A stretch of DNA of 64,000 bases, taken from contig NZ_JAAKEN010000002.1 in the NCBI RefSeq assembly GCF_011039175.1, positions 62,001 to 126,000 on the forward strand. Reading direction: 5' to 3'. The position numbers were made by a program, and so were the translations under genes. This document shows positions 34,250-43,698 of the stretch, piece after piece. The number at the start of each line of letters is the position of its first letter. Position 1 is the stretch's first letter. Below the pieces are notes generated by a model. The model saw only the letters and a list, made by a program, of their open reading frames with translations. It made no database searches and had not been told where the DNA came from. Source of the DNA: Slackia sp. ZJ119 (GTDB lineage: Bacteria; Actinomycetota; Coriobacteriia; Coriobacteriales; Eggerthellaceae).

Positions 34250-34588
34250 CTAGCGGGTTTCCTCCCACGGCGCACCCGCCGCGTTGAGCTTGCGGCGCCC
34301 GGCCAGCTCGTCGGCGAACATGATGCAGTAGCGCAGACCCTTGAGCGTCACGTACAAACTCGCGATCTCGTGCTTGGTGCCATGGTTGAACACCTCGTAG
34401 GTGAGGTACTCGCGGTCGATCATCGGCTGGTAGACGGGGCTGCCCTCCACCTTGCTCAGCAGCAGGTTGGTGGCCTGGCGGCCCAGCTCGTCCTGCTTGA
34501 GCGAGATGTTGTACAGGATGTTTTCCTGCTCGGGCTCAAGCCGGCCCAGCTGTGCCACTTCTGCTCGGATCTCTTCTTCAGTAGACAT
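34250..34588 (-). CDS. Hypothetical protein next to folding genes
   Basis: 112 residues with an AGGAGG site upstream of the ATG at 34588. An acidic helical N-terminal third (STEEEIRAEVAQLGRLEPEQENILYNISLKQDELG) is followed by a mixed part with FNHGTKHEIASLYVTLKGLRYCIMF. There are no signal or membrane segments. I do not recognise a family. It starts after the terminator that closes the molybdoenzyme operon and lies 116 bases upstream of the FKBP gene, so it probably belongs with the folding genes. Confidence 0.65.
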   Translation of the reverse strand: MSTEEEIRAEVAQLGRLEPEQENILYNISLKQDELGRQATNLLLSKVEGSPVYQPMIDREYLTYEVFNHGTKHEIASLYVTLKGLRYCIMFADELAGRRKLNAAGAPWEETR

Positions 34589-34738: not shown

Positions 34739-35014
34739 TTACACGCCCTGATAGCCCTTGGACGGGTCGCTGTTGCCAACACCGTTGTCGCTGTCGCCGG
34801 CCTCGTTGCCGGTACGCTTCGTGGACGTGTAGCCGCCCCAAGCGCGAGCGATGTACTTGTCCTTCACGAAGAAGATTTGAGCCTTCATCAGGTCCGCCTT
34901 GGCCAGGCCGAACTCAGCCAAAGCCTCGTCTTGGGTCTTGCCCTGCGCAAGCAATTCGTTGAGCTTCTCGGCGCCTTCGCGGGCGTCAATCGCCAAGAAT
35001 TCGTCCTTGGTCAT
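34739..35014 (-). CDS. Small hypothetical protein at the end of the molybdoenzyme operon
   Basis: 91 residues from an ATG at 35014 with an excellent AGGAGG site. It is mostly helical (FLAIDAREGAEKLNELLAQGKTQDEALAEFGL), ending in a Gly/Asp/Asn-rich flexible tail. The first 50 residues read like a small helix-turn-helix-type or adaptor fold, but no family is recognised. It follows the small subunit by 91 bases and is closed by the terminator at 34684-34713, so it is probably part of the same transcript. A chaperone or maturation role for the molybdoenzyme is only a guess. Confidence 0.7.
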   Translation of the reverse strand: MTKDEFLAIDAREGAEKLNELLAQGKTQDEALAEFGLAKADLMKAQIFFVKDKYIARAWGGYTSTKRTGNEAGDSDNGVGNSDPSKGYQGV

Positions 35015-35105: not shown

Positions 35106-35465
35106 TTACAGCTGGAACAGCACCATGGGGCGGTCGAACTCCGCCATCTTGGCCTGCATTTCCTCCAGCGTGCCATAGTACATGGACGCCGACTCCTCTA
35201 CCTGAACAGCCAGAGGACGCTGACCGGCCTTGTCGCCGTTCGTTCCCCAGTGCTCAGAGAAGATGGACGTGGGGCACGGAATGTAGAACCACTCCCACGC
35301 ATCGCCGTCAGCACCTTCGCCCTTGCGGAACGGACCGACTTCGACTTCCTTGATGCCGAACTGATCCAGCGGAAGGCCAAGCTCTTCCTTGCAGGCGATC
35401 TCGGCAGCGTGGTTGCCCGAGAAGTACGTGTAATCAACGAGCAGCGCGTATTTCTGATCTGCCAT
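35106..35465 (-). CDS. DmsB-like small subunit lacking the Fe-S cysteines
   Basis: 119 residues from an ATG at 35465. The text aligns by eye with the ferredoxin-type subunits of DMSO-reductase family enzymes: KYALLVDYTYFSGNHAAEIACKEE stands where such proteins have DYxxCxxCxxCxxAC. Three of the four first-cluster cysteines are replaced (Phe15, Asn18, Ala21) and only Cys25 remains. The later PTxxCxxC and PxCxxxC stretches read PTSIFSEHW and RPLAVQVEESA, again without cysteine. The ending MYYGTLEEMQAKMAEFDRP is typical. So the fold is probably kept as a structural partner with no electron-transfer role. It follows the catalytic gene by 20 bases. Confidence 0.8.
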   Translation of the reverse strand: MADQKYALLVDYTYFSGNHAAEIACKEELGLPLDQFGIKEVEVGPFRKGEGADGDAWEWFYIPCPTSIFSEHWGTNGDKAGQRPLAVQVEESASMYYGTLEEMQAKMAEFDRPMVLFQL

Positions 35466-35485
35466 TTGCGTCACTTCCCTTTCTG

Positions 35486-37798
35486 TTAGTCCTGGTCCAG
35501 GCTGCGGACGCGACGGACGTTGCACATAACGCCCTTGTACGGCGCGCCGAACCCGAGCTTGCCAACGTTGAAGTGCGGGACGAGGCTGTTGAAGTTGGAC
35601 TTCCACACGCCGAACAGGTTGGGCTCTTCGCCGTCCTGCTCAGGGAACCACCAGCCATGAGCGCAGTTCAGAATGCCAGGCTTGATGACAGGCGTGATCT
35701 CGGCCTTGAAGCGAGCCTCGCCGAACATGTTGTAGACCTCGCACCAGTCGCCGTCGGTGATGCCGTATTCCTTCGCGGTCTCAGGATTGATCTGGACCCA
35801 CGGCCACGGATCGATCTGACGCAGGGAAGGCACCTGCCTGTGCTCGGAATGGAACGAGCTGTAGCGGCGCGAACCAGACGTGGTAATGAGCGGATACTGC
35901 GCAGCAAAGTCAGGCTTGCTGATCTGCGAGTAGTTGGGCTCCTCGTAGTACGGCAGCGGATCCTCGCCCCAGGATTCGTACAGAATCGAGTAGGCTTCGA
36001 TCTGGCCGGTGATGGTGTTGAAGCCGGGCTCGCCGTCGAAGCGCAGGAGGCCCTTCTCGTACTTCTCGTACTCGAAGCCATGAGCGCCGGGCTGATACAG
36101 GCCAGCCTCGCGGAACGAATCCCAATCGTAGCCGACTTCCTTCAGCTGATCGCTGTAGAAGTCCTTGACAGCCTTGTCGAGAGCCTCGAGGTCAAGCGAC
36201 TTGCCGTCGGCGGGCTTGTACCACGGCCACCACGAGGGGTTCAGGCGCTGGCCGAACATCAAGCAGATTTCCACGTCGGACTTGCACTCGCCCACCGTGA
36301 GAGCCTTGTTCATGGGGCCCATGAACACGGTGTTGCGGCCGTAGTGCGTGAGCACGATGCCGTCATGCTCAGCCCAGGTGGAGATGGGCAGGAAGTAGTC
36401 GCCCACAGCCATGGCCGTCGGGGTCATGGTAGCATCCTGCACGACCACGAACTCGAGCTTCTGCAGGGCCTTGTGCCAACGCTTCGGCTGAGCAGAGCAG
36501 GTCGGGGTCAGGAAGTTGGAGCTGTTGAACCAGCCCATCTTCAGAGCGTAGGGCTCGTCGGTCTCCATGGTGTTCAGCGTCTCGTCAGGCTGGGTGGTAG
36601 CCATGCCGGTGGACAGGCCGGGCCACGCAGCAGCGCCGATGCGCTTCTCCCACACGGAGTCGTCCATGGCGCCACGCTGCTCCATGCGCCACTTGCCGAG
36701 CAGAGCCGACGGAGGACCGAGGGTCACGCCACCGGGACGGTCGATAGAGCCAGCCAGGGCCGCCAGCACGATGAACGCCTGCGACAGCTGCACGCCGTTC
36801 TTGTTCTGGTCGAAGGCCAGGCCCCACGCCCAACCGATCGGGCGCTCGGTGCCGATGATGTGGGCCACGCGGCGGATGTCCTCGGCGTCGACGCCGGTGA
36901 TCTCGGCCACTTTGTCCACGGGATACTCAGCCGCACGAGCCTTGATCTCGTCCAGGCCGTAGATCCACTTCTCGGCGAACTCATGATCGTACTCGTCCGT
37001 CTCGAACATGAGGTTCATGATGGCCAGAGCCATCGCGGTGTCGGTCTGAGGACGCACCTGCAGGTTGATGTTGCCGTCATGGGCGCCAACCCAGGTGACG
37101 CGCGGGTCGACGGAGATGATGTGCGTGCCGCGCTTCATCAGGTCGACGAGGCAGTGACCGAAGAAACCGTCGCCGTTGGAAGGCAGCGGCTCCTTGCCCC
37201 ACACGACAACCCACTTCGGGAGCGTGTAGCGCGGGTCGTCGTAGCTGCCCGGCAGATGACCGGCGTAGTCGAGCTCGGGATAGCCGGCGCCCAACACGTA
37301 GTCGGAAATGGAGCAGCGGGGGCCGTAGCACGACCAACCGGACTGCGTGTAGCAGCAGTTGGGCGACTGCAGCACCGAGAACGTCAGCGCGTAATAGAAG
37401 ATGCAAGCCTCACGGCCGGTGCCACCGAAGCAGACGATGGACTCGGGGCCGTAGGTGTTCTGGAAGTAACGCACCTTCTCGCAAATGGTGTCCATGGCCT
37501 CGTCCCACGTGGTGCGGACCCATTTGTCCTTGCCGCGGTCTTTGGGATCGCGCTTCATGGGGTAGATGATGCGCTCGGGCGCGTAGGTGTACTCGCGCAG
37601 GGCGAGGTTCATCGCGTTCACGCGGCCCGTGGTGATGGGATTGTCGTCGTCGCCTTCAATGCGGATGAGCTTCCCATCCTTCGTGACAACCTTGACGCCA
37701 TATCCTACCGGATGGCTTCCCGGAGGCGACCACGTGTTGCTGCGGGTGACGACGGTGCCGTCCTCCATTACGGTTTGCCACTGTTTACCGTATGCCAT
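35486..37798 (-). CDS. Molybdopterin (DMSO reductase family) oxidoreductase catalytic subunit without the N-terminal Fe-S cysteines
   Basis: 770 residues from an ATG at 37798 (AAGGAG site). Family landmarks include the SPPGSHPVGYGVKV start, TTWDEAMDTI, SGWSCYGPR, VVWGKEP, WAWGLAFDQ, and a C-terminal cofactor-binding domain from about 650 (TTSGSRRYSSFHSEH). Relatives of this type bind a 4Fe-4S cluster through cysteines near residues 28, 33 and 61; here these are Ser28, Tyr33 and Asn61. There is no twin-arginine signal, so it is cytoplasmic. It resembles the catechol-dehydroxylase/transhydroxylase branch found in gut Coriobacteriia more than respiratory reductases. The substrate is unknown; an aromatic or phenolic compound is likely given the neighbouring transporter. 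Confidence 0.9.
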   Translation of the reverse strand: MAYGKQWQTVMEDGTVVTRSNTWSPPGSHPVGYGVKVVTKDGKLIRIEGDDDNPITTGRVNAMNLALREYTYAPERIIYPMKRDPKDRGKDKWVRTTWDEAMDTICEKVRYFQNTYGPESIVCFGGTGREACIFYYALTFSVLQSPNCCYTQSGWSCYGPRCSISDYVLGAGYPELDYAGHLPGSYDDPRYTLPKWVVVWGKEPLPSNGDGFFGHCLVDLMKRGTHIISVDPRVTWVGAHDGNINLQVRPQTDTAMALAIMNLMFETDEYDHEFAEKWIYGLDEIKARAAEYPVDKVAEITGVDAEDIRRVAHIIGTERPIGWAWGLAFDQNKNGVQLSQAFIVLAALAGSIDRPGGVTLGPPSALLGKWRMEQRGAMDDSVWEKRIGAAAWPGLSTGMATTQPDETLNTMETDEPYALKMGWFNSSNFLTPTCSAQPKRWHKALQKLEFVVVQDATMTPTAMAVGDYFLPISTWAEHDGIVLTHYGRNTVFMGPMNKALTVGECKSDVEICLMFGQRLNPSWWPWYKPADGKSLDLEALDKAVKDFYSDQLKEVGYDWDSFREAGLYQPGAHGFEYEKYEKGLLRFDGEPGFNTITGQIEAYSILYESWGEDPLPYYEEPNYSQISKPDFAAQYPLITTSGSRRYSSFHSEHRQVPSLRQIDPWPWVQINPETAKEYGITDGDWCEVYNMFGEARFKAEITPVIKPGILNCAHGWWFPEQDGEEPNLFGVWKSNFNSLVPHFNVGKLGFGAPYKGVMCNVRRVRSLDQD

Positions 37799-37961
37799 AT
37801 TCTCCTTCTTTCTACACTCTCACTCGTGTTAGTAGAGGCATGTGCGCATTACACGCAAGCTGATACTGGCCTAGTGTCGGCGACCACCCCCTCTCATAGC
37901 GCGTTGGCGTGCGCGGAGCCTTCCTTGCGGACGGGCCGCCGCGCACCGTCTGCCGGCCGTC

Positions 37962-38228
37962 TTACGCGACGGGAGGCTTGGGAGCGCCGGGCGCGGCGGG
38001 AGCGCCGGGGGCCTTGGGCGCGCCGGGGGCGGCAGGGGCGCCGGGTGCGGCCGTCGGGATCTCCTTGGTGCCGTCGAGGTAGGGCGTGAAGTCCGCCTTG
38101 CAGAACGGGCAGGCCTTCAGCATGATGCCGCCCATCGTCTGAATGGTCTTCCCGCACTCGGGGCACTTGTTCGGGCCGCCGCCTGCGCTAGCGTCTGCTG
38201 GTCTGAAGCACATAGAACAAACCTCCAT
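37962..38228 (-). CDS. Zinc-ribbon protein with a Pro-Gly-Ala repeat tail, copy A
   Basis: 88 residues. Three CxxC pairs (Cys4/7, 22/25, 40/43) make a zinc-ribbon or rubredoxin-like head. The tail from about residue 59 is a collagen-like series of PGAPAAPGAPKAPGAP units. A near-identical protein is encoded at 41279-41545. The ATG at 38228 keeps all three CxxC pairs, but the best ribosome site (GGAGG) lies inside these first codons and would serve a Met five codons later (38213), so the start is uncertain. It is the first gene before the molybdoenzyme on the same strand, with 163 bases and no terminator between. Function unknown; a metal- or cofactor-related helper is plausible. Confidence 0.75.
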   Translation of the reverse strand: MEVCSMCFRPADASAGGGPNKCPECGKTIQTMGGIMLKACPFCKADFTPYLDGTKEIPTAAPGAPAAPGAPKAPGAPAAPGAPKPPVA

Positions 38229-38274: not shown

Positions 38275-38340
38275 TTTGCAGTAACCTTCGCCAGACATGA
38301 CCTGGCAAGTGATCAGATTACGTGTCTGGCGCAGAACAGG

Positions 38341-38416
38341 CATCGAATCACGGGGACAATTTATGGTGCCGCAGCATCGTACCGATGGGATGATTTTCAT
38401 CATCCTTTAGGAACGG
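38341..38416 (-). promoter_or_regulatory. Conserved upstream block, copy A
   Basis: 76 bases nearly identical to 41667-41742, starting CATCGAATCACGGGGACAAT on the plus strand. It includes the small palindromes CATCG-TAC-CGATG and GATGA-TTT-TCATC. It lies about 115 bases upstream of the zinc-ribbon ATG, the right place for a shared promoter and regulator site. The CATAAATT on the minus strand could be a -10 region. Confidence 0.6.
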
Positions 38417-38586
38417 TTTCTTACATAATGGCTGGTAGGTAGCTTGTTTTCAAATTGCGCAGCCGCACACGAAACCACGCCGGATCGCCTTTTGGCACCC
38501 ATTTGGCATGATGCGCGACGCATGCTGCCCCATTAGAATCGGGGGACGTGGAAAGGCGTTTCTCGGCCTTCCCGGAAAGGATTCCT

Positions 38587-39177
38587 ATGAAGAACAACAA
38601 GGCGTATTTTTCTGTCGACGCCCTTGCGAGCGAACGCGACTTCGACGTGTGGTATGCCGACGGCGACGTGTTTCTGAACATCAGGGGCCCCTGGACGAGC
38701 GAGCGCGATCGAGTGACCATCTTCGGACGCATGGGCGGCGAGATGGGCTGCATCAAACCCGACGCGAAGGCGCTCACCTATTACCTGAAGCTGGAGCGTT
38801 GGGAATACGTGTTCCATACGCTGCGCGTGTTTGAAAACTACTTCGTGGAAGGCATGAAGTGGCGAGCTGACGGCAGCCTGGCAAACCCGCCCTTCGACTT
38901 CGTGAACGAGGACACCGGACGGTCAGAAGTCCATGTGCAGGTGACGCATCTCAAAGGGCGCGGAGAGTGCTTCGAGGTGCGTGCTCGCGACGTGGCGGCC
39001 CTGCGCATCGCCGTGGCGGCCGTCATAGCCATGGGCATCAAAGAGCACCACAAAGGCCTGAGCGAGGGCTTTCTGGACACCAGCAGGTCACGCCTTGCCA
39101 GGATAAAGAGCTGGCTGTTCGCCGACAAGGGCATCACCTACGAAGAGCTGCAAAGGCAAAAGGAACTTGAGAGCTGA
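38587..39177 (+). CDS. Hypothetical protein, 196 residues
   Basis: From an ATG at 38587 with an AAAGGA site (an ATG 13 codons upstream has none). A soluble mixed alpha/beta protein: YFSVDALASERDFDVWYADGDVFLNIRGPWTSERDRVTIFGRMGGE reads as beta-strands of a barrel-like fold. The C-terminal third is helical and basic (DTSRSRLARIKSWLFADKGIT). No family is recognised; a tubby-like or LURP-one-like barrel would fit but is unproven. It is transcribed divergently from zinc-ribbon copy A and is flanked by a strong terminator, so it is a separate unit inside the molybdoenzyme locus. Confidence 0.7.
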   Translation: MKNNKAYFSVDALASERDFDVWYADGDVFLNIRGPWTSERDRVTIFGRMGGEMGCIKPDAKALTYYLKLERWEYVFHTLRVFENYFVEGMKWRADGSLANPPFDFVNEDTGRSEVHVQVTHLKGRGECFEVRARDVAALRIAVAAVIAMGIKEHHKGLSEGFLDTSRSRLARIKSWLFADKGITYEELQRQKELES

Positions 39178-39327: not shown

Positions 39328-41028
39328 CTATTTCTTCGAAGACATGACAGCCTTGTTCTTGGCAAGCTGCGCACCGCCGAACACGAAGAAGTACGCGAAG
39401 GGCAGCAGCAGGCCGACGGCCATGAGCGGCAACGCGTAGGGCTGCTTGGACCAGGCAGGCACAACCAGCGGGCACACGATGCAGAGGATGGCCAGAATGG
39501 CCACGATCGCCAGCATGATCATGAAGCGCGTGTTGCCGTCGCTCTCGGACGCACCCAGCTTCTCTTCCTCGGCAGCCAGCTGATCCATGGTCTTGCCAGC
39601 CGTTTCCTTCACGAACAGCACCGTGCAGACAAAGCCCAGGGCGAACGGCACGATGAGCACCAGCACGACGGTCGACCAGTTGGTGGTGCCGGCAGCGGTC
39701 TGGAAGAACGCCATGCCGGCGATGCCGCCGAGCACGATGGACGAGGCCGAACCGCCGAAGCGGGCGAACGCCTGGCACCACGAGGTGCCGGTGTTGCGGA
39801 TGGCCGTAGGATAGCTTTCAGGCATGAGCGGCTGCACGGCCGTGATGGCGTAGTTCAGCGCGAAGCCGAACAGCAGCATCAGCGCGATGCACAGGCCCAT
39901 GTTGTTGGGAGCCACGAACAGCGAGCACAGCACGATGGCCACGATGCAGAACAGCCACGAGAACGCCAGGTTGCGCTTGCGGCCCACCTTGTCGGACACG
40001 AAGCCGACCGTGATGTTGGACGCGATGGCGGCCACGTTGTTCCACGTCTGCAGAGCAACGGAGTCGGCCTGAGAGTAGCCCAGACCCACGAACCACGTGG
40101 GAATCCAGGCGTTCATGCCGTACACGCAGAACTGGCCCACGAAGTACGCGGCCCAAATGGCGCACGTAGCAACGATGAACTTGCTGGAGAACAGCACCGA
40201 AGGACCGGTCTTGGCAGGCTTGGGCGGAACGATGAGCAGATTGGGGTCGTACTCGTGAGAGGTGTGACGCGTAGCCTGCTCGATCTGCGTGAGGCGCTTG
40301 CAAGCCATCACCTTGTTGCCGGAGTTGGCATACCAGTGCGGCGTCTCATGCATGAGGAAGATGAGCACGACGCCATAGAGCAGCGGGATGGCGCCGATCA
40401 GGTAGCACAAACGCCAGTTGGCGTACATGGTGGCCGAGCTGCCGTCAGCCATCGTATAGGTCACCTCGTTCGTGAAGCCGCCCAAGATAGGACCGGCGGC
40501 GTTGCAGATGGGGTTGGCGATAAGGCCGGCCAGAACCCAGCCCACGACCATGAAGGCCATGCCGAACGTCACGAACACGCCGCGCTGCTTGGACGGCATG
40601 CTCTCAGAGAACACCGTGGTGACGACCGGGATGCAGGAGCCCACGCCGAAGCCGGCGATGAGGCGGAACGCCGCGAAGAACGCCAGGTCGTTCGCGAACG
40701 CCTGCGGCAGCGTGAACAGGCCGTAGAACATAACGGCGACCACGAGCGTCTTCTTGCGGCCGAAGCGGTCGGAAGCGATGCCGCCGACTGCGCCGCCCAA
40801 AACCATGCCCAGAAGACCCCAGGTGGTCAGCGAGCCCATGAGGGCGCCGGGGTTGGGATCGTTGGGCCAGAACGTATGAGCCACAAACAGGTTGGTTGAA
40901 TTGACGATCATGAAGTCATAGCCGTCGAAGATCATGGCGAAAGCGAGCAGCACGAACACGGTCCATGTGTGCCCACTGATGCCGATAGAGTCAATGACCT
41001 CTGAGATCGTAAACTCTTTTTTGTCCAT
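39328..41028 (-). CDS. MFS transporter, aromatic-acid:H+ symporter-like
   Basis: 566 residues with an AAAAGGAGG site. The first helix carries FDGYDFMIVN, the D-G-Y-D motif characteristic of AAHS-type carriers for benzoate-like acids. The loop 2-3 motif is GGIASDRFGRKKT and the matching loop 8-9 motif is GFVSDKVGRKRN. Twelve helices are followed by a charged segment (ETAGKTMDQLAAEEEKLG) and two extra C-terminal helices, so the protein is longer than usual. It is preceded by zinc-ribbon copy B on the same strand. It probably imports the substrate of the molybdoenzyme encoded 1.5 kb downstream. Confidence 0.9.
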   Translation of the reverse strand: MDKKEFTISEVIDSIGISGHTWTVFVLLAFAMIFDGYDFMIVNSTNLFVAHTFWPNDPNPGALMGSLTTWGLLGMVLGGAVGGIASDRFGRKKTLVVAVMFYGLFTLPQAFANDLAFFAAFRLIAGFGVGSCIPVVTTVFSESMPSKQRGVFVTFGMAFMVVGWVLAGLIANPICNAAGPILGGFTNEVTYTMADGSSATMYANWRLCYLIGAIPLLYGVVLIFLMHETPHWYANSGNKVMACKRLTQIEQATRHTSHEYDPNLLIVPPKPAKTGPSVLFSSKFIVATCAIWAAYFVGQFCVYGMNAWIPTWFVGLGYSQADSVALQTWNNVAAIASNITVGFVSDKVGRKRNLAFSWLFCIVAIVLCSLFVAPNNMGLCIALMLLFGFALNYAITAVQPLMPESYPTAIRNTGTSWCQAFARFGGSASSIVLGGIAGMAFFQTAAGTTNWSTVVLVLIVPFALGFVCTVLFVKETAGKTMDQLAAEEEKLGASESDGNTRFMIMLAIVAILAILCIVCPLVVPAWSKQPYALPLMAVGLLLPFAYFFVFGGAQLAKNKAVMSSKK

Positions 41029-41278
41029 CAGTCCCTCCTTTTGAGGTAACTCGTTGCATTAGGTGCCAGTGCGATGCTCGTTCGCCTTGCACAAACGAAC
41101 ATTGCACCAACGTTTGAAACTCTCTTTCTGCAGCAGCAAGATCGAAATTTGCAGCAGGCTTGCCGCCAGCCCGCCTGCCCTGTGAAAAGCAGCTGCTCAC
41201 ATCCCCCTCTCAGGATGTGTCGACGCTGCGCGGAGCCTTCCTTGCGGACGGGCCGCCGCGCACCGTCTGCCGGCCGTC

Positions 41279-41545
41279 TTACGCGACGGGAGGCTTGGGG
41301 GCGCCGGGTGCGGCGGGAGCGCCGGGGGCCTTGGGCGCGCCGGGGGCGGCAGGGGCGCCGGGGGCCGCCGTGGGGATCTCCTTGGTGCCGTCGAGGTAGG
41401 GCGTGAAGTCCGCCTTGCAGAACGGACAGGCCTTCAGCATGATGCCGCCCATCGTCTGAATGGTCTTCCCGCACTCGGGGCACTTGTTCGGGCCGCCGCC
41501 TGCGCTAGCGTCTGCTGGTCTGAAGCACATAAAGCAAACCTCCAT
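41279..41545 (-). CDS. Zinc-ribbon protein with a Pro-Gly-Ala repeat tail, copy B
   Basis: 88 residues, almost identical to copy A at 37962-38228; residue 5 is Phe instead of Ser. The three CxxC pairs and the PGAP repeats are kept. The same start ambiguity applies (ATG at 41545 or at 41530). The 3' flank of about 50 bases is also the same as in copy A, so the whole cassette of promoter block, leader, gene and flank was duplicated. It lies 250 bases upstream of the MFS gene on the same strand. Confidence 0.75.
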   Translation of the reverse strand: MEVCFMCFRPADASAGGGPNKCPECGKTIQTMGGIMLKACPFCKADFTPYLDGTKEIPTAAPGAPAAPGAPKAPGAPAAPGAPKPPVA

Positions 41546-41601: not shown

Positions 41602-41666
41602 TCTGCAGTAACCTTTCGCCAGGCATGACCTGGCCTCTGACAGATTAGTGGCCGCTGCAGGCAGGG

Positions 41667-41742
41667 CATCGAATCACGGGGACAATTTATGGTGCCGCGG
41701 CATCGTACCGACGGGTTGATTTTCATCATCCTCGAGAAACGG
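41667..41742 (-). promoter_or_regulatory. Conserved upstream block, copy B
   Basis: Nearly identical to 38341-38416 apart from a few positions around the palindromes (GACGGGTTGAT instead of GATGGGATGAT). It is the probable promoter and regulator-binding region for the zinc-ribbon/MFS unit. The LuxR regulator gene starts 205 bases further on in the opposite direction. Confidence 0.6.
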
Positions 41743-41946: not shown

Positions 41947-43698
41947 ATGAACATCAACCTTCCGCGCATAAGCATCATCGTGGACGACAGCCAGGGCATG
42001 GGGGCCCAAGGCGAACTGAACACCTTGTCGCTGGGCCTCGGCCTTCATCAGGCATGGATTTATGCGGCCATGTTCGGCGCGAACCGCCTGTTCCATGCCG
42101 AGCCTCTCAGCTTCCAGGAAAACGCCCAGACCCTCGTCTCCTGCTTCCTCCTGATTTCCATTGTGACGTTTGGCGCCTCGCTTCTGTTCGCCGTCGTCAC
42201 CGACCAGAAGCTTCTCAGGTTCTATACCGCCAAGCGCGTTTTGGCGGGTGCCAGCGCTTTGACCGCATCGGGCACGCTCGCAGCGTTCGCCGGGCCGATT
42301 CCCGGCGCGTTGGGAGTTCTGGCAACCGTGTTCGCAGGCGTATCGACCGGCATAGGCTCGGCGCTGCTTCTGCTGTTCTGGGGCACTGCCTATTCCCGCC
42401 ACAGCGCCGCCACCATCACGATGAACACGGCGGTGGCCATCGTGATAGCCGTGGCCGTCTACCTGTTTGCGCTGCACGCGCTGCCCTACCCTTACGCAGG
42501 AGTGTTCACCGCCCTGCTGCCGCTGCTGGAGCTGCCGTTTTTGTGGCAGTTGACGCCGGTGAGCTATGCGGTGCGCCACGCGGTGCCCATCTTCAACCCC
42601 TTGCCGGTGAACAAAGGCCCGTTTTCGCTGCGCCTGGCGCTTCCGATGCTTCTGTTCGGCTTTGCGCTCGGAGCGCTTCGCAGCACGTCTTTGCAGATCA
42701 TCCTGCCTTCGTCGGACCCCATCACGCAGCTGCTCGCACTGTTCGCAGGCGGGGCCGCCACCGTGCTTTTGCTGATAACCGTGTTCTCGCTCGACAGGCG
42801 CAGCAGCTGGGACTTCCTGTTCCGCCCGCTTGTCCCCTTCATCGCCATCACGCTGTTCTTCCTGCCTTCCGCCGCGCTCAACGATTCAACGTTCGCCACG
42901 TTGGTGCTGCTCACGGGCTACATGTGCTTCGAAGCGCTCATGTGGGTCTTTTTCGGCGAGATGTCCCAAGAGTTCCGCCTGTCCCCCATTTTCGTGTTCG
43001 GCGTGGGACGGAGCTGTCTTGCTTTCGGATCGCTGGCCAGCGTGCTCGCCATGTCCAACCCGAGCCTGATCAAGGCCATGACGCCGTTCGGCGAGGCGGG
43101 CGGAGCCATGATCGTCATGGCCTGCTTGATCGTCGGCTATGCGCTTTTGCCGCGCGTGCGCGACATCAGGCACGCCGTGGTGCAGGGCGTGCACAATTCG
43201 AACGCCATAGAAAGTTTCAACGACCAGGCGGCGGACCAGGAGGCGCAGGCCGCTTGCGAGACCCAGAAGGCTCAAGAGGCTCAGGAAGGCCAGGCGGCGC
43301 AGGACGGCGCGAACGTGGCGATCGTCAAAAGCGAGGGGCCGGAAAGCGCAGGCGGCAGCGATGCGCCAGCAAGCGAAGACGCGCCCCCCGCAGCCGAAAC
43401 GCCCGCAGAGGCCGCCTTGGCCCAAGAGAGTCGTGCTCGCAAGAGCGGGCGCTTCCGCACGCAGTGCGAGATCATAGCCGACCGCTACCTGCTCTCGCGG
43501 CGCGAGACCGAGGTCATGTTCCTGCTCGCCAAAGGCTACAACGCCGCCTTCATCCAGGACAAGCTGTGCATTTCGAAGAGCACGGCCAAAACCCACATCG
43601 GCCACATCTACCGCAAGCTGGACATCCACAACCAGCAAGAGCTGCTGGCCATGGTGGAAAAGACCCGCGAAGAGCTGCTGGAAGACGACAGCCGGTAG
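41947..43698 (+). CDS. LuxR-type regulator with a 12-helix membrane domain
   Basis: 583 residues. The first ~420 residues form about 12 membrane helices in an MFS-like pattern. A Glu/Ala/Gln-rich cytosolic linker follows (about 425-505). The LuxR helix-turn-helix is at the end (about 515-575: LSRRETEVMFLLAKGYNAAFIQDKLCISKSTAKTHIGHIYRKL). Such membrane-tethered regulators are abundant in Eggerthellaceae and are generally taken to sense a small molecule at the membrane and control the adjacent genes. It is divergent from the zinc-ribbon/MFS unit and is the natural candidate to bind the two conserved upstream blocks. Confidence 0.9.
   Translation: MNINLPRISIIVDDSQGMGAQGELNTLSLGLGLHQAWIYAAMFGANRLFHAEPLSFQENAQTLVSCFLLISIVTFGASLLFAVVTDQKLLRFYTAKRVLAGASALTASGTLAAFAGPIPGALGVLATVFAGVSTGIGSALLLLFWGTAYSRHSAATITMNTAVAIVIAVAVYLFALHALPYPYAGVFTALLPLLELPFLWQLTPVSYAVRHAVPIFNPLPVNKGPFSLRLALPMLLFGFALGALRSTSLQIILPSSDPITQLLALFAGGAATVLLLITVFSLDRRSSWDFLFRPLVPFIAITLFFLPSAALNDSTFATLVLLTGYMCFEALMWVFFGEMSQEFRLSPIFVFGVGRSCLAFGSLASVLAMSNPSLIKAMTPFGEAGGAMIVMACLIVGYALLPRVRDIRHAVVQGVHNSNAIESFNDQAADQEAQAACETQKAQEAQEGQAAQDGANVAIVKSEGPESAGGSDAPASEDAPPAAETPAEAALAQESRARKSGRFRTQCEIIADRYLLSRRETEVMFLLAKGYNAAFIQDKLCISKSTAKTHIGHIYRKLDIHNQQELLAMVEKTREELLEDDSR

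What the first reader, a model, noticed from the sequence alone, without database searches (positions are those of the whole stretch)
35106..37798. Molybdoenzyme pair in which both subunits have lost their Fe-S cysteines
Seen: in the catalytic subunit, the positions where this branch of the DMSO-reductase family has cluster cysteines read Ser28, Tyr33 and Asn61 (SPPGSHPVGYG and GRVNAMNLAL). In the small subunit, a DmsB-like sequence keeps its frame and typical ending but has Phe15, Asn18 and Ala21 in place of three first-cluster cysteines and no cysteines in the later cluster segments. Known: such enzymes normally pass electrons through these clusters; some relatives (transhydroxylase type) run net non-redox reactions and lack the cluster in the large subunit. 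Inference: this pair may catalyse an isomerisation, transfer or hydration, or take electrons directly from a soluble donor, with the small protein kept only as a scaffold. Concerted loss in both partners argues against random decay.
Basis: partly seen in the sequence, partly recalled or inferred. Interest (0 to 1): 0.88.

Follow-up and report, generated by a model that had tools for sequence, protein, structure and literature searches.

The report
Iron-sulfur-free gut catechol dehydroxylase
This gene pair is a gut-bacterial molybdenum enzyme of the kind that strips a hydroxyl group from the coffee and vegetable compound hydrocaffeic acid; it has lost every iron-sulfur cluster its close relatives use as an electron wire, yet its counterpart in Gordonibacter is a proven working reductase, so how electrons reach the metal is open.

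Summary
Both subunits lack their Fe-S cysteines: S28, Y33, N61, N64 in the large one (bridging Arg63 is Met), and 7 of 8 gone in the small one. It is not decay. The same substitutions are fixed in a pair conserved across many genera of gut Coriobacteriia, under strong purifying selection, nested inside a clade with intact cysteines. Length (770 aa), host species, an HcdR-like LuxR regulator and two-subunit make-up identify the pair as the orthologue of Gp Hcdh ('Unk-9', Bae et al. 2024). That hydrocaffeic-acid dehydroxylase is the most transcribed catechol dehydroxylase in two human gut datasets; it was purified, contains Mo, is active with viologen/dithionite, and is needed for hydrocaffeic-acid-driven ATP formation. 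Best explanation: a Gordonibacter-type catechol dehydroxylase that reduces its substrate at Mo-bisMGD without Fe-S relays, electrons entering directly from an unknown donor, the small subunit kept as a structural partner. Function is by orthology; the electron route is inference. The texts I could read do not mention this enzyme's lost cysteines. New variant of a known kind.

The parts
35486..37798 (-). Large (catalytic) subunit, 770 aa, Mo-bisMGD DMSO-reductase family; orthologue of Gp HcdhA; C157 is the predicted Mo ligand
   Evidence: (aligned with acetylene hydratase Cys141)
37607..37717 (-). Vestigial N-terminal Fe-S (FS0) site: codons for S28, Y33, N61, M63, N64; relatives have C/D, C, C, R, C
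35106..35465 (-). Small subunit, 119 aa, half-length DmsB-like protein with 7 of 8 cluster cysteines replaced
35391..35423 (-). First vestigial cluster motif F15-x2-N18-x2-A21-x3-C25
35196..35261 (-). Second vestigial cluster motif F69-x2-H72 ... A86-x2-V89/E90
34739..35014 (-). g0, 91 aa, conserved next gene of unknown function; also weakly present beside the intact sister clade and the FS0-lost class
34250..34588 (-). g1, 112 aa, conserved fourth gene; among the loci read, found only with the Cys-free pair and not detected in one deep branch (L126)
37962..38213 (-). 83-aa protein with two CxxC motifs (zinc-ribbon or rubredoxin-like), first gene of the unit in many orthologous loci
   Evidence: (family hits below cut-off)
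38322..38416 (-). Shared promoter or operator-like element upstream of the enzyme unit (contains inverted repeat GGTTGAT-GAAA-ATCAACC in Gordonibacter)
39328..41028 (-). MFS transporter, probable substrate importer
41648..41742 (-). Second copy of the shared element, upstream of the transporter unit (85% identical)
41947..43698 (+). Membrane-type LuxR regulator, 583 aa, 46% identical to the E. lenta HcdR candidate; the marker that links the locus to Gp Hcdh

Best explanation
The pair is the window organism's hydrocaffeic-acid dehydroxylase, orthologue of Gp Hcdh (Unk-9): a cytoplasmic two-subunit Gordonibacter-type catechol dehydroxylase that removes the para-hydroxyl of a catechol at a Mo-bisMGD centre. 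Its lineage has discarded the whole Fe-S relay, the site in the catalytic subunit and both clusters of the small subunit, without giving up reductive chemistry. Electrons therefore most likely enter at or near the Mo cofactor directly from a soluble donor, as in other DMSO-reductase-family enzymes that lack FS0 (DorA is the documented case). The small subunit is kept as a structural or docking partner. Shown: the sequence state, its fixation, its phylogenetic origin and gene neighbourhood. Shown by others for the Gordonibacter orthologue: reductive activity, Mo content, ATP coupling. Inferred: that the window copy has the same substrate, that no Fe-S is present in the protein, and the route of electrons.
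For: Pair conserved at 78-95% (large) and 76-98% (small) identity, down to 71% and 60% in two deep branches, with identical replacements. Cys-free clade monophyletic (FastTree support 1.0) inside members with intact cysteines. Mo-ligating C157 and many other residues invariant across intact and Cys-free members. Identity with Gp Hcdh: exactly 770 aa in G. pamelaeae 7-10-1-b with no upstream Met, against 770 aa in the paper; same named hosts, Gordonibacter, Paraeggerthella hongkongensis RC2/2 A, Ellagibacter DSM 104140, Raoultibacter. The best HcdR-like LuxR in each genome tested lies at this locus (only Raoultibacter G040 shows a second one above threshold, at 32%, near its second Cys-free pair); in G. 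pamelaeae it has 45.3% identity and 61% positives to the HcdR candidate against the paper's 44% and 60%. That E. lenta regulator lies about 7 kb from a TAT-bearing molybdoenzyme with a Met giving 1193 aa, the published Hcdh length. No other molybdoenzyme of the clade lies within the 27 kb read in G. pamelaeae. Biochemistry of Gp Hcdh: purified enzyme, kcat 28.3 per min, Km 0.24 mM, Mo equimolar, deletion loses activity and ATP formation.
Against: Identification with Gp Hcdh rests on several concordant markers, not on the published sequence itself (supplement not readable here). Iron content of Gp Hcdh is not reported in the main text. No electron donor is known, and no conserved redox protein lies in the neighbourhood except possibly the two-CxxC protein, which also sits near intact relatives and was not detected in some orthologous loci. 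Structure predictions were of low confidence, so the scaffold role and the filling of the cluster pockets are not shown.
Confidence: 0.78

Rival explanations
1. One reading: a net non-redox enzyme (isomerase, hydratase or transhydroxylase).
For: Acetylene hydratase is the closest solved structure, and pyrogallol transhydroxylase also lacks FS0 in its large subunit (established knowledge).
Against: The orthologue performs net two-electron reduction and supports ATP formation. Acetylene hydratase similarity is shared by the whole dehydroxylase clade (PMC7028382), and acetylene hydratase has its own Fe-S cluster. Pyrogallol transhydroxylase uses a Ser Mo ligand (PMC10100899); here it is Cys.
Confidence: 0.05
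2. Ping-pong two-substrate enzyme: in the cell the Mo centre is re-reduced by oxidising a second small molecule (formate or another phenol) in the same active site, so no electron wire is needed; viologen merely replaces it in vitro.
For: Loss of all relays including the Arg63 next to FS0; transhydroxylase precedent; no clear conserved redox partner in the neighbourhood.
Against: Hydrocaffeic acid supports ATP formation like DMSO, which fits a respiratory or electron-sink role better; no co-substrate is known.
Confidence: 0.12
3. A cluster is still present, bound by relocated or non-cysteine ligands.
For: Six cysteines of the large subunit are conserved in this clade and rare elsewhere.
Against: Most of them are shared with the intact sister clade L142/L156, other subclades have 4-15 such clade-specific cysteines, and of the conserved ones only C148 is absent from all near relatives listed. 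The small subunit has no more than two widely kept cysteines.
Confidence: 0.06
4. Degenerate copy or pseudo-enzyme.
For: None beyond the lost cysteines.
Against: Intact frames in all complete loci; dN/dS 0.02-0.09; fixed replacements; strongest gut transcription of its family for Gp Hcdh.
Confidence: 0.01

Closest known systems
Gp Hcdh (Unk-9), hydrocaffeic-acid dehydroxylase of Gordonibacter pamelaeae (PMC11585353)
   Same: Orthologous locus: 770-aa catalytic subunit, small accessory subunit, HcdR-like LuxR; 94% identity of the large subunit in G. pamelaeae.
   Different: Nothing structural found; its cysteine loss is not mentioned in the main text read here.
Other Gordonibacter-type catechol dehydroxylases (Dodh, Cldh/Eddh, Eadh)
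   Same: Same two-subunit cytoplasmic architecture, MFS and LuxR neighbours, same clade.
   Different: Typical clade members keep the cysteines at 28/33/61/64 and eight in the small subunit; the window class keeps none of the first and one of the second.
FS0-lost class in the same genome (C17) and in Raoultibacter (L149, L151)
   Same: Lost the large-subunit cluster cysteines (E28, W33, N/S61).
   Different: Small subunit keeps both clusters; two separate places in the tree. It shows the large-subunit site can be lost alone.
DorA and TorA DMSO/TMAO reductases
   Same: Reductive DMSO-reductase-family enzymes; lack of FS0 is documented for DorA (PMC10100899), for TorA from general knowledge; working analogy for direct electron entry.
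   Different: Periplasmic, Ser ligand, haem-protein donors (general knowledge), no vestigial Fe-S subunit.
Pyrogallol transhydroxylase
   Same: Catalytic subunit without an Fe-S cluster, phenolic substrate.
   Different: Ser Mo ligand, Fe-S small subunit, net non-redox reaction.
Acetylene hydratase
   Same: Closest solved structure, Cys metal ligand.
   Different: Has a [4Fe-4S] cluster, monomeric, hydration of acetylene.

Membership tests
Gordonibacter-type catechol dehydroxylase | Catalytic subunit about 770-800 aa, DMSO-reductase family, no TAT signal, in the same clade | tested here: met
   770 aa, starts MAYGKQWQ; nested in the clade
Gordonibacter-type catechol dehydroxylase | Adjacent small electron-transfer subunit with Fe-S clusters | tested here: not met
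   Homologous small subunit present, but 7 of 8 cluster cysteines replaced; so it is filed as a variant, not a typical member
Gordonibacter-type catechol dehydroxylase | MFS transporter and membrane LuxR regulator nearby | tested here: met
   window 39328-41028 and 41947-43698
Gp Hcdh orthologue | 770-aa catalytic subunit in G. pamelaeae and the same host list | tested here: met
Gp Hcdh orthologue | Co-localised LuxR closest to E. lenta HcdR, about 44% identity | tested here: met
   45.3% identity, 61.0% positives in G. pamelaeae; 46% in the window; best HcdR-like hit in each genome
Gp Hcdh orthologue | Published protein sequence identical or near-identical | not testable with these tools
   Sequence is in a supplement that could not be read
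Gp Hcdh orthologue | Hydrocaffeic acid dehydroxylation | not testable with these tools
   Needs an assay; 93-94% identity to Gordonibacter orthologues
Pyrogallol transhydroxylase | Ser ligand to Mo and Fe-S small subunit | tested here: not met
   C157 aligned with acetylene hydratase Cys141; no Fe-S motif in the small subunit
Acetylene hydratase | Single subunit with one [4Fe-4S] cluster | tested here: not met
   Cluster cysteines absent; two-subunit gene pair
Complex iron-sulfur molybdoenzymes (CISM) | Fe-S clusters in catalytic and/or electron-transfer subunit | tested here: not met
   No cluster motif in either subunit

The most novel reading that the evidence does not exclude
The most transcribed catechol dehydroxylase of the human gut works with no Fe-S cluster at all, closing its Mo cycle by a route not seen in this family: either a dedicated non-Fe-S protein donor or a second substrate oxidised in the same active site. 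The former electron-transfer subunit has become a cluster-free structural subunit.
Probability: 0.45. Interest if true: 0.8.

Novelty: new variant of a known kind. Interest (0 to 1): 0.64.

Why it matters
Papers and a review describe Gordonibacter-type dehydroxylases as passing electrons through an Fe-S small subunit. If the family's most expressed member in the human gut has none, that model cannot be general. The clade also offers a rare series of states (intact, site lost in the large subunit only, all sites lost) for asking what Fe-S relays are needed for in a respiratory molybdoenzyme. It warns against reading lost cysteines as lost redox chemistry.

Tried and rejected
Decay: rejected by conservation and dN/dS. 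Shifted or relocated cysteines: rejected by comparing clade-specific cysteines with other subclades. Non-redox enzyme: rejected once the locus was matched to Gp Hcdh. Another widespread Gordonibacter-type enzyme (L141/L162/L169 type) as the true Gp Hcdh: rejected because its LuxR is only distantly related to HcdR. AlphaFold2 models of both subunits had mean pLDDT 56.7 and were not searched against structure libraries. Pfam had no hit for the small subunit and none above cut-off for g0 or g1. Relatives outside Coriobacteriia: none named among the loci from a scan of 84,980 species genomes at pattern sensitivity, and in a sample of 296 genomes of the phylum only two members, both of the window's own family. 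IQ-TREE bootstrap run timed out without supports; FastTree supports were used instead.

Full report
Setting. The finding's coordinates hold two genes on the minus strand: a 770-aa molybdopterin oxidoreductase (35486-37798) and a 119-aa protein (35106-35465). Pfam does not recognise the small one. NCBIfam gives only a sub-threshold DmsB hit, but its homology to ordinary Fe-S small subunits of the same enzyme clade is clear (about 35-46% identity, E down to 1e-26).

Observation. Relative to 68 clade members with an intact site, the large subunit has S28, Y33, N61 and N64 for C/D, C, C and C, and Met63 for the Arg between the last two. The small subunit has F15, N18, A21 for the first three cysteines and F69, H72, A86, V89/E90 in the second cluster region; C25 alone remains and is itself replaced in one deep branch. 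A caveat from the literature: a review states that Gordonibacter catalytic subunits lack the Fe-S motif found in Eggerthella ones (PMC11574389). I find four conserved cysteines with unusual spacing in nearly all of them, so an FS0-like site there is likely but is itself an inference.

Not decay. The pair's small subunit is found in 38 of 398 sampled Coriobacteriia genomes at the strict threshold, two or three of which are borderline members of other kinds, and in 42 named loci, including Gordonibacter, Paraeggerthella, Raoultibacter, Ellagibacter, Adlercreutzia and several animal-gut metagenome genomes. A wide score gap separates it from other small subunits (above 230, then 164 for two deep members, then 93 bits). 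The replacement residues are fixed. dN/dS against G. pamelaeae is about 0.09 for the large and 0.02 for the small subunit. The two genes are followed by two further conserved small genes, g0 and g1. Upstream come, in many loci, a two-CxxC protein, an MFS transporter and a membrane LuxR.

Origin. In the large-subunit tree the Cys-free clade is monophyletic and lies among members with intact sites. A second class has lost only the large-subunit site and keeps an intact small subunit. One such enzyme is in the same genome (contig C17), others in Raoultibacter, and the tree puts them in two places. Counts: Cys-free large with Cys-free small, 31 (plus the window); intact large with intact small, 50; site-lost large with intact small, 3; intact large with Cys-free small, 0.

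What it does. The clade is that of the Gordonibacter-type catechol dehydroxylases (PMC7028382, PMC11887054, PMC12771579). Bae et al. 2024 (PMC11585353) describe Unk-9, renamed Gp Hcdh, a two-subunit enzyme with a 770-aa catalytic subunit encoded by Gordonibacter, P. hongkongensis RC2/2 A, E. isourolithinifaciens DSM 104140 and R. massiliensis, next to a LuxR regulator 44% identical (60% similar) to E. lenta HcdR. Testing each marker: the Cys-free large subunit of G. pamelaeae 7-10-1-b is exactly 770 aa. In genome G070, whose size (3,632,260 bp) matches what I recall for E. lenta DSM 2243, the best match to the window's LuxR lies about 7 kb from a molybdoenzyme with a TAT signal and a Met giving 1193 aa, the published length of E. 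lenta Hcdh. In five further genomes and the window's own, the best HcdR-like regulator is the one beside the Cys-free pair, and in G. pamelaeae it is 45.3% identical and 61.0% positive. No other molybdoenzyme of this clade lies in the 27 kb read there. A competing widespread enzyme has only a distant LuxR. I take the assignment as very likely; the published sequence itself was not readable.

Consequence. Gp Hcdh was purified natively, reduces hydrocaffeic acid with methyl viologen and dithionite (kcat 28.3 per min, Km 0.24 mM), contains equimolar Mo, and its deletion in G. urolithinfaciens abolishes activity and hydrocaffeic-acid-driven ATP formation. So this is a reductase, not an isomerase or hydratase. 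The nearest intact relatives (54-58% identity) belong to the same dehydroxylase clade. Losing the Fe-S chain therefore did not mean losing redox chemistry. The main texts searched do not mention the lost cysteines of this enzyme; supplements could not be read, so I cannot say nobody has noticed.

Mechanism. Shown: Cys157, aligned with the tungsten ligand Cys141 of acetylene hydratase (chain position 138; numbering offset from general knowledge), is invariant. Inferred: electrons enter directly at the Mo cofactor from a soluble donor. Precedent: DMSO-reductase-family members without the N-terminal cluster, such as DorA (PMC10100899). Candidate donors in the neighbourhood are weak; the two-CxxC protein also accompanies intact relatives and was not detected in some orthologous loci. 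A ping-pong second substrate cannot be excluded. Relocated clusters are unlikely. Structure predictions were too uncertain to help.

Verdict. Real, selected, and mostly explained: a cluster-free variant of a known enzyme type whose function is already known for its orthologue. The surprising, testable remainder is the electron route.

Noticed in passing
window 37910-38209 and 41227-41526: Two copies, 98% identical over 300 nt, of the two-CxxC (MCFRPAD...) gene, one before the enzyme genes and one before the MFS gene; the encoded 83-aa proteins are identical, suggesting recent duplication or gene conversion.
   Followed up: partly
window 38322-38416 and 41648-41742; L088:4060-4143, L089:814-875, L054:16306-16337: A shared 60-95-nt element with a short inverted repeat (GGTTGAT-GAAA-ATCAACC in Gordonibacter) precedes both the enzyme and transporter units in several genera; it looks like a common operator, possibly for the HcdR-like LuxR.
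   Followed up: partly
L021 (own genome contig C17), L149, L151, L155: A separate class of catechol-dehydroxylase-like enzymes that lost the large-subunit cluster cysteines (E28, W33) but, where a partner was found, keep an intact Fe-S small subunit.
   Followed up: partly
L142, L154, L156, L161, L165, L167, L176: Clade members with Asp in place of Cys28 and a Cys at position 21; these may have an unusually ligated cluster.
   Followed up: no
L070 (Raoultibacter-like genome G040): A second, more diverged Cys-free pair (78% large, 88-89% small) in the same genome as an ordinary copy; it may have a different substrate. A more distant HcdR-like LuxR (32%) lies close to it.
   Followed up: no
window 38548-39177: 208-aa gene of unknown function, on the opposite strand to the unit, that recurs beside the Cys-free pair in many loci but has no Pfam match.
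   Followed up: no
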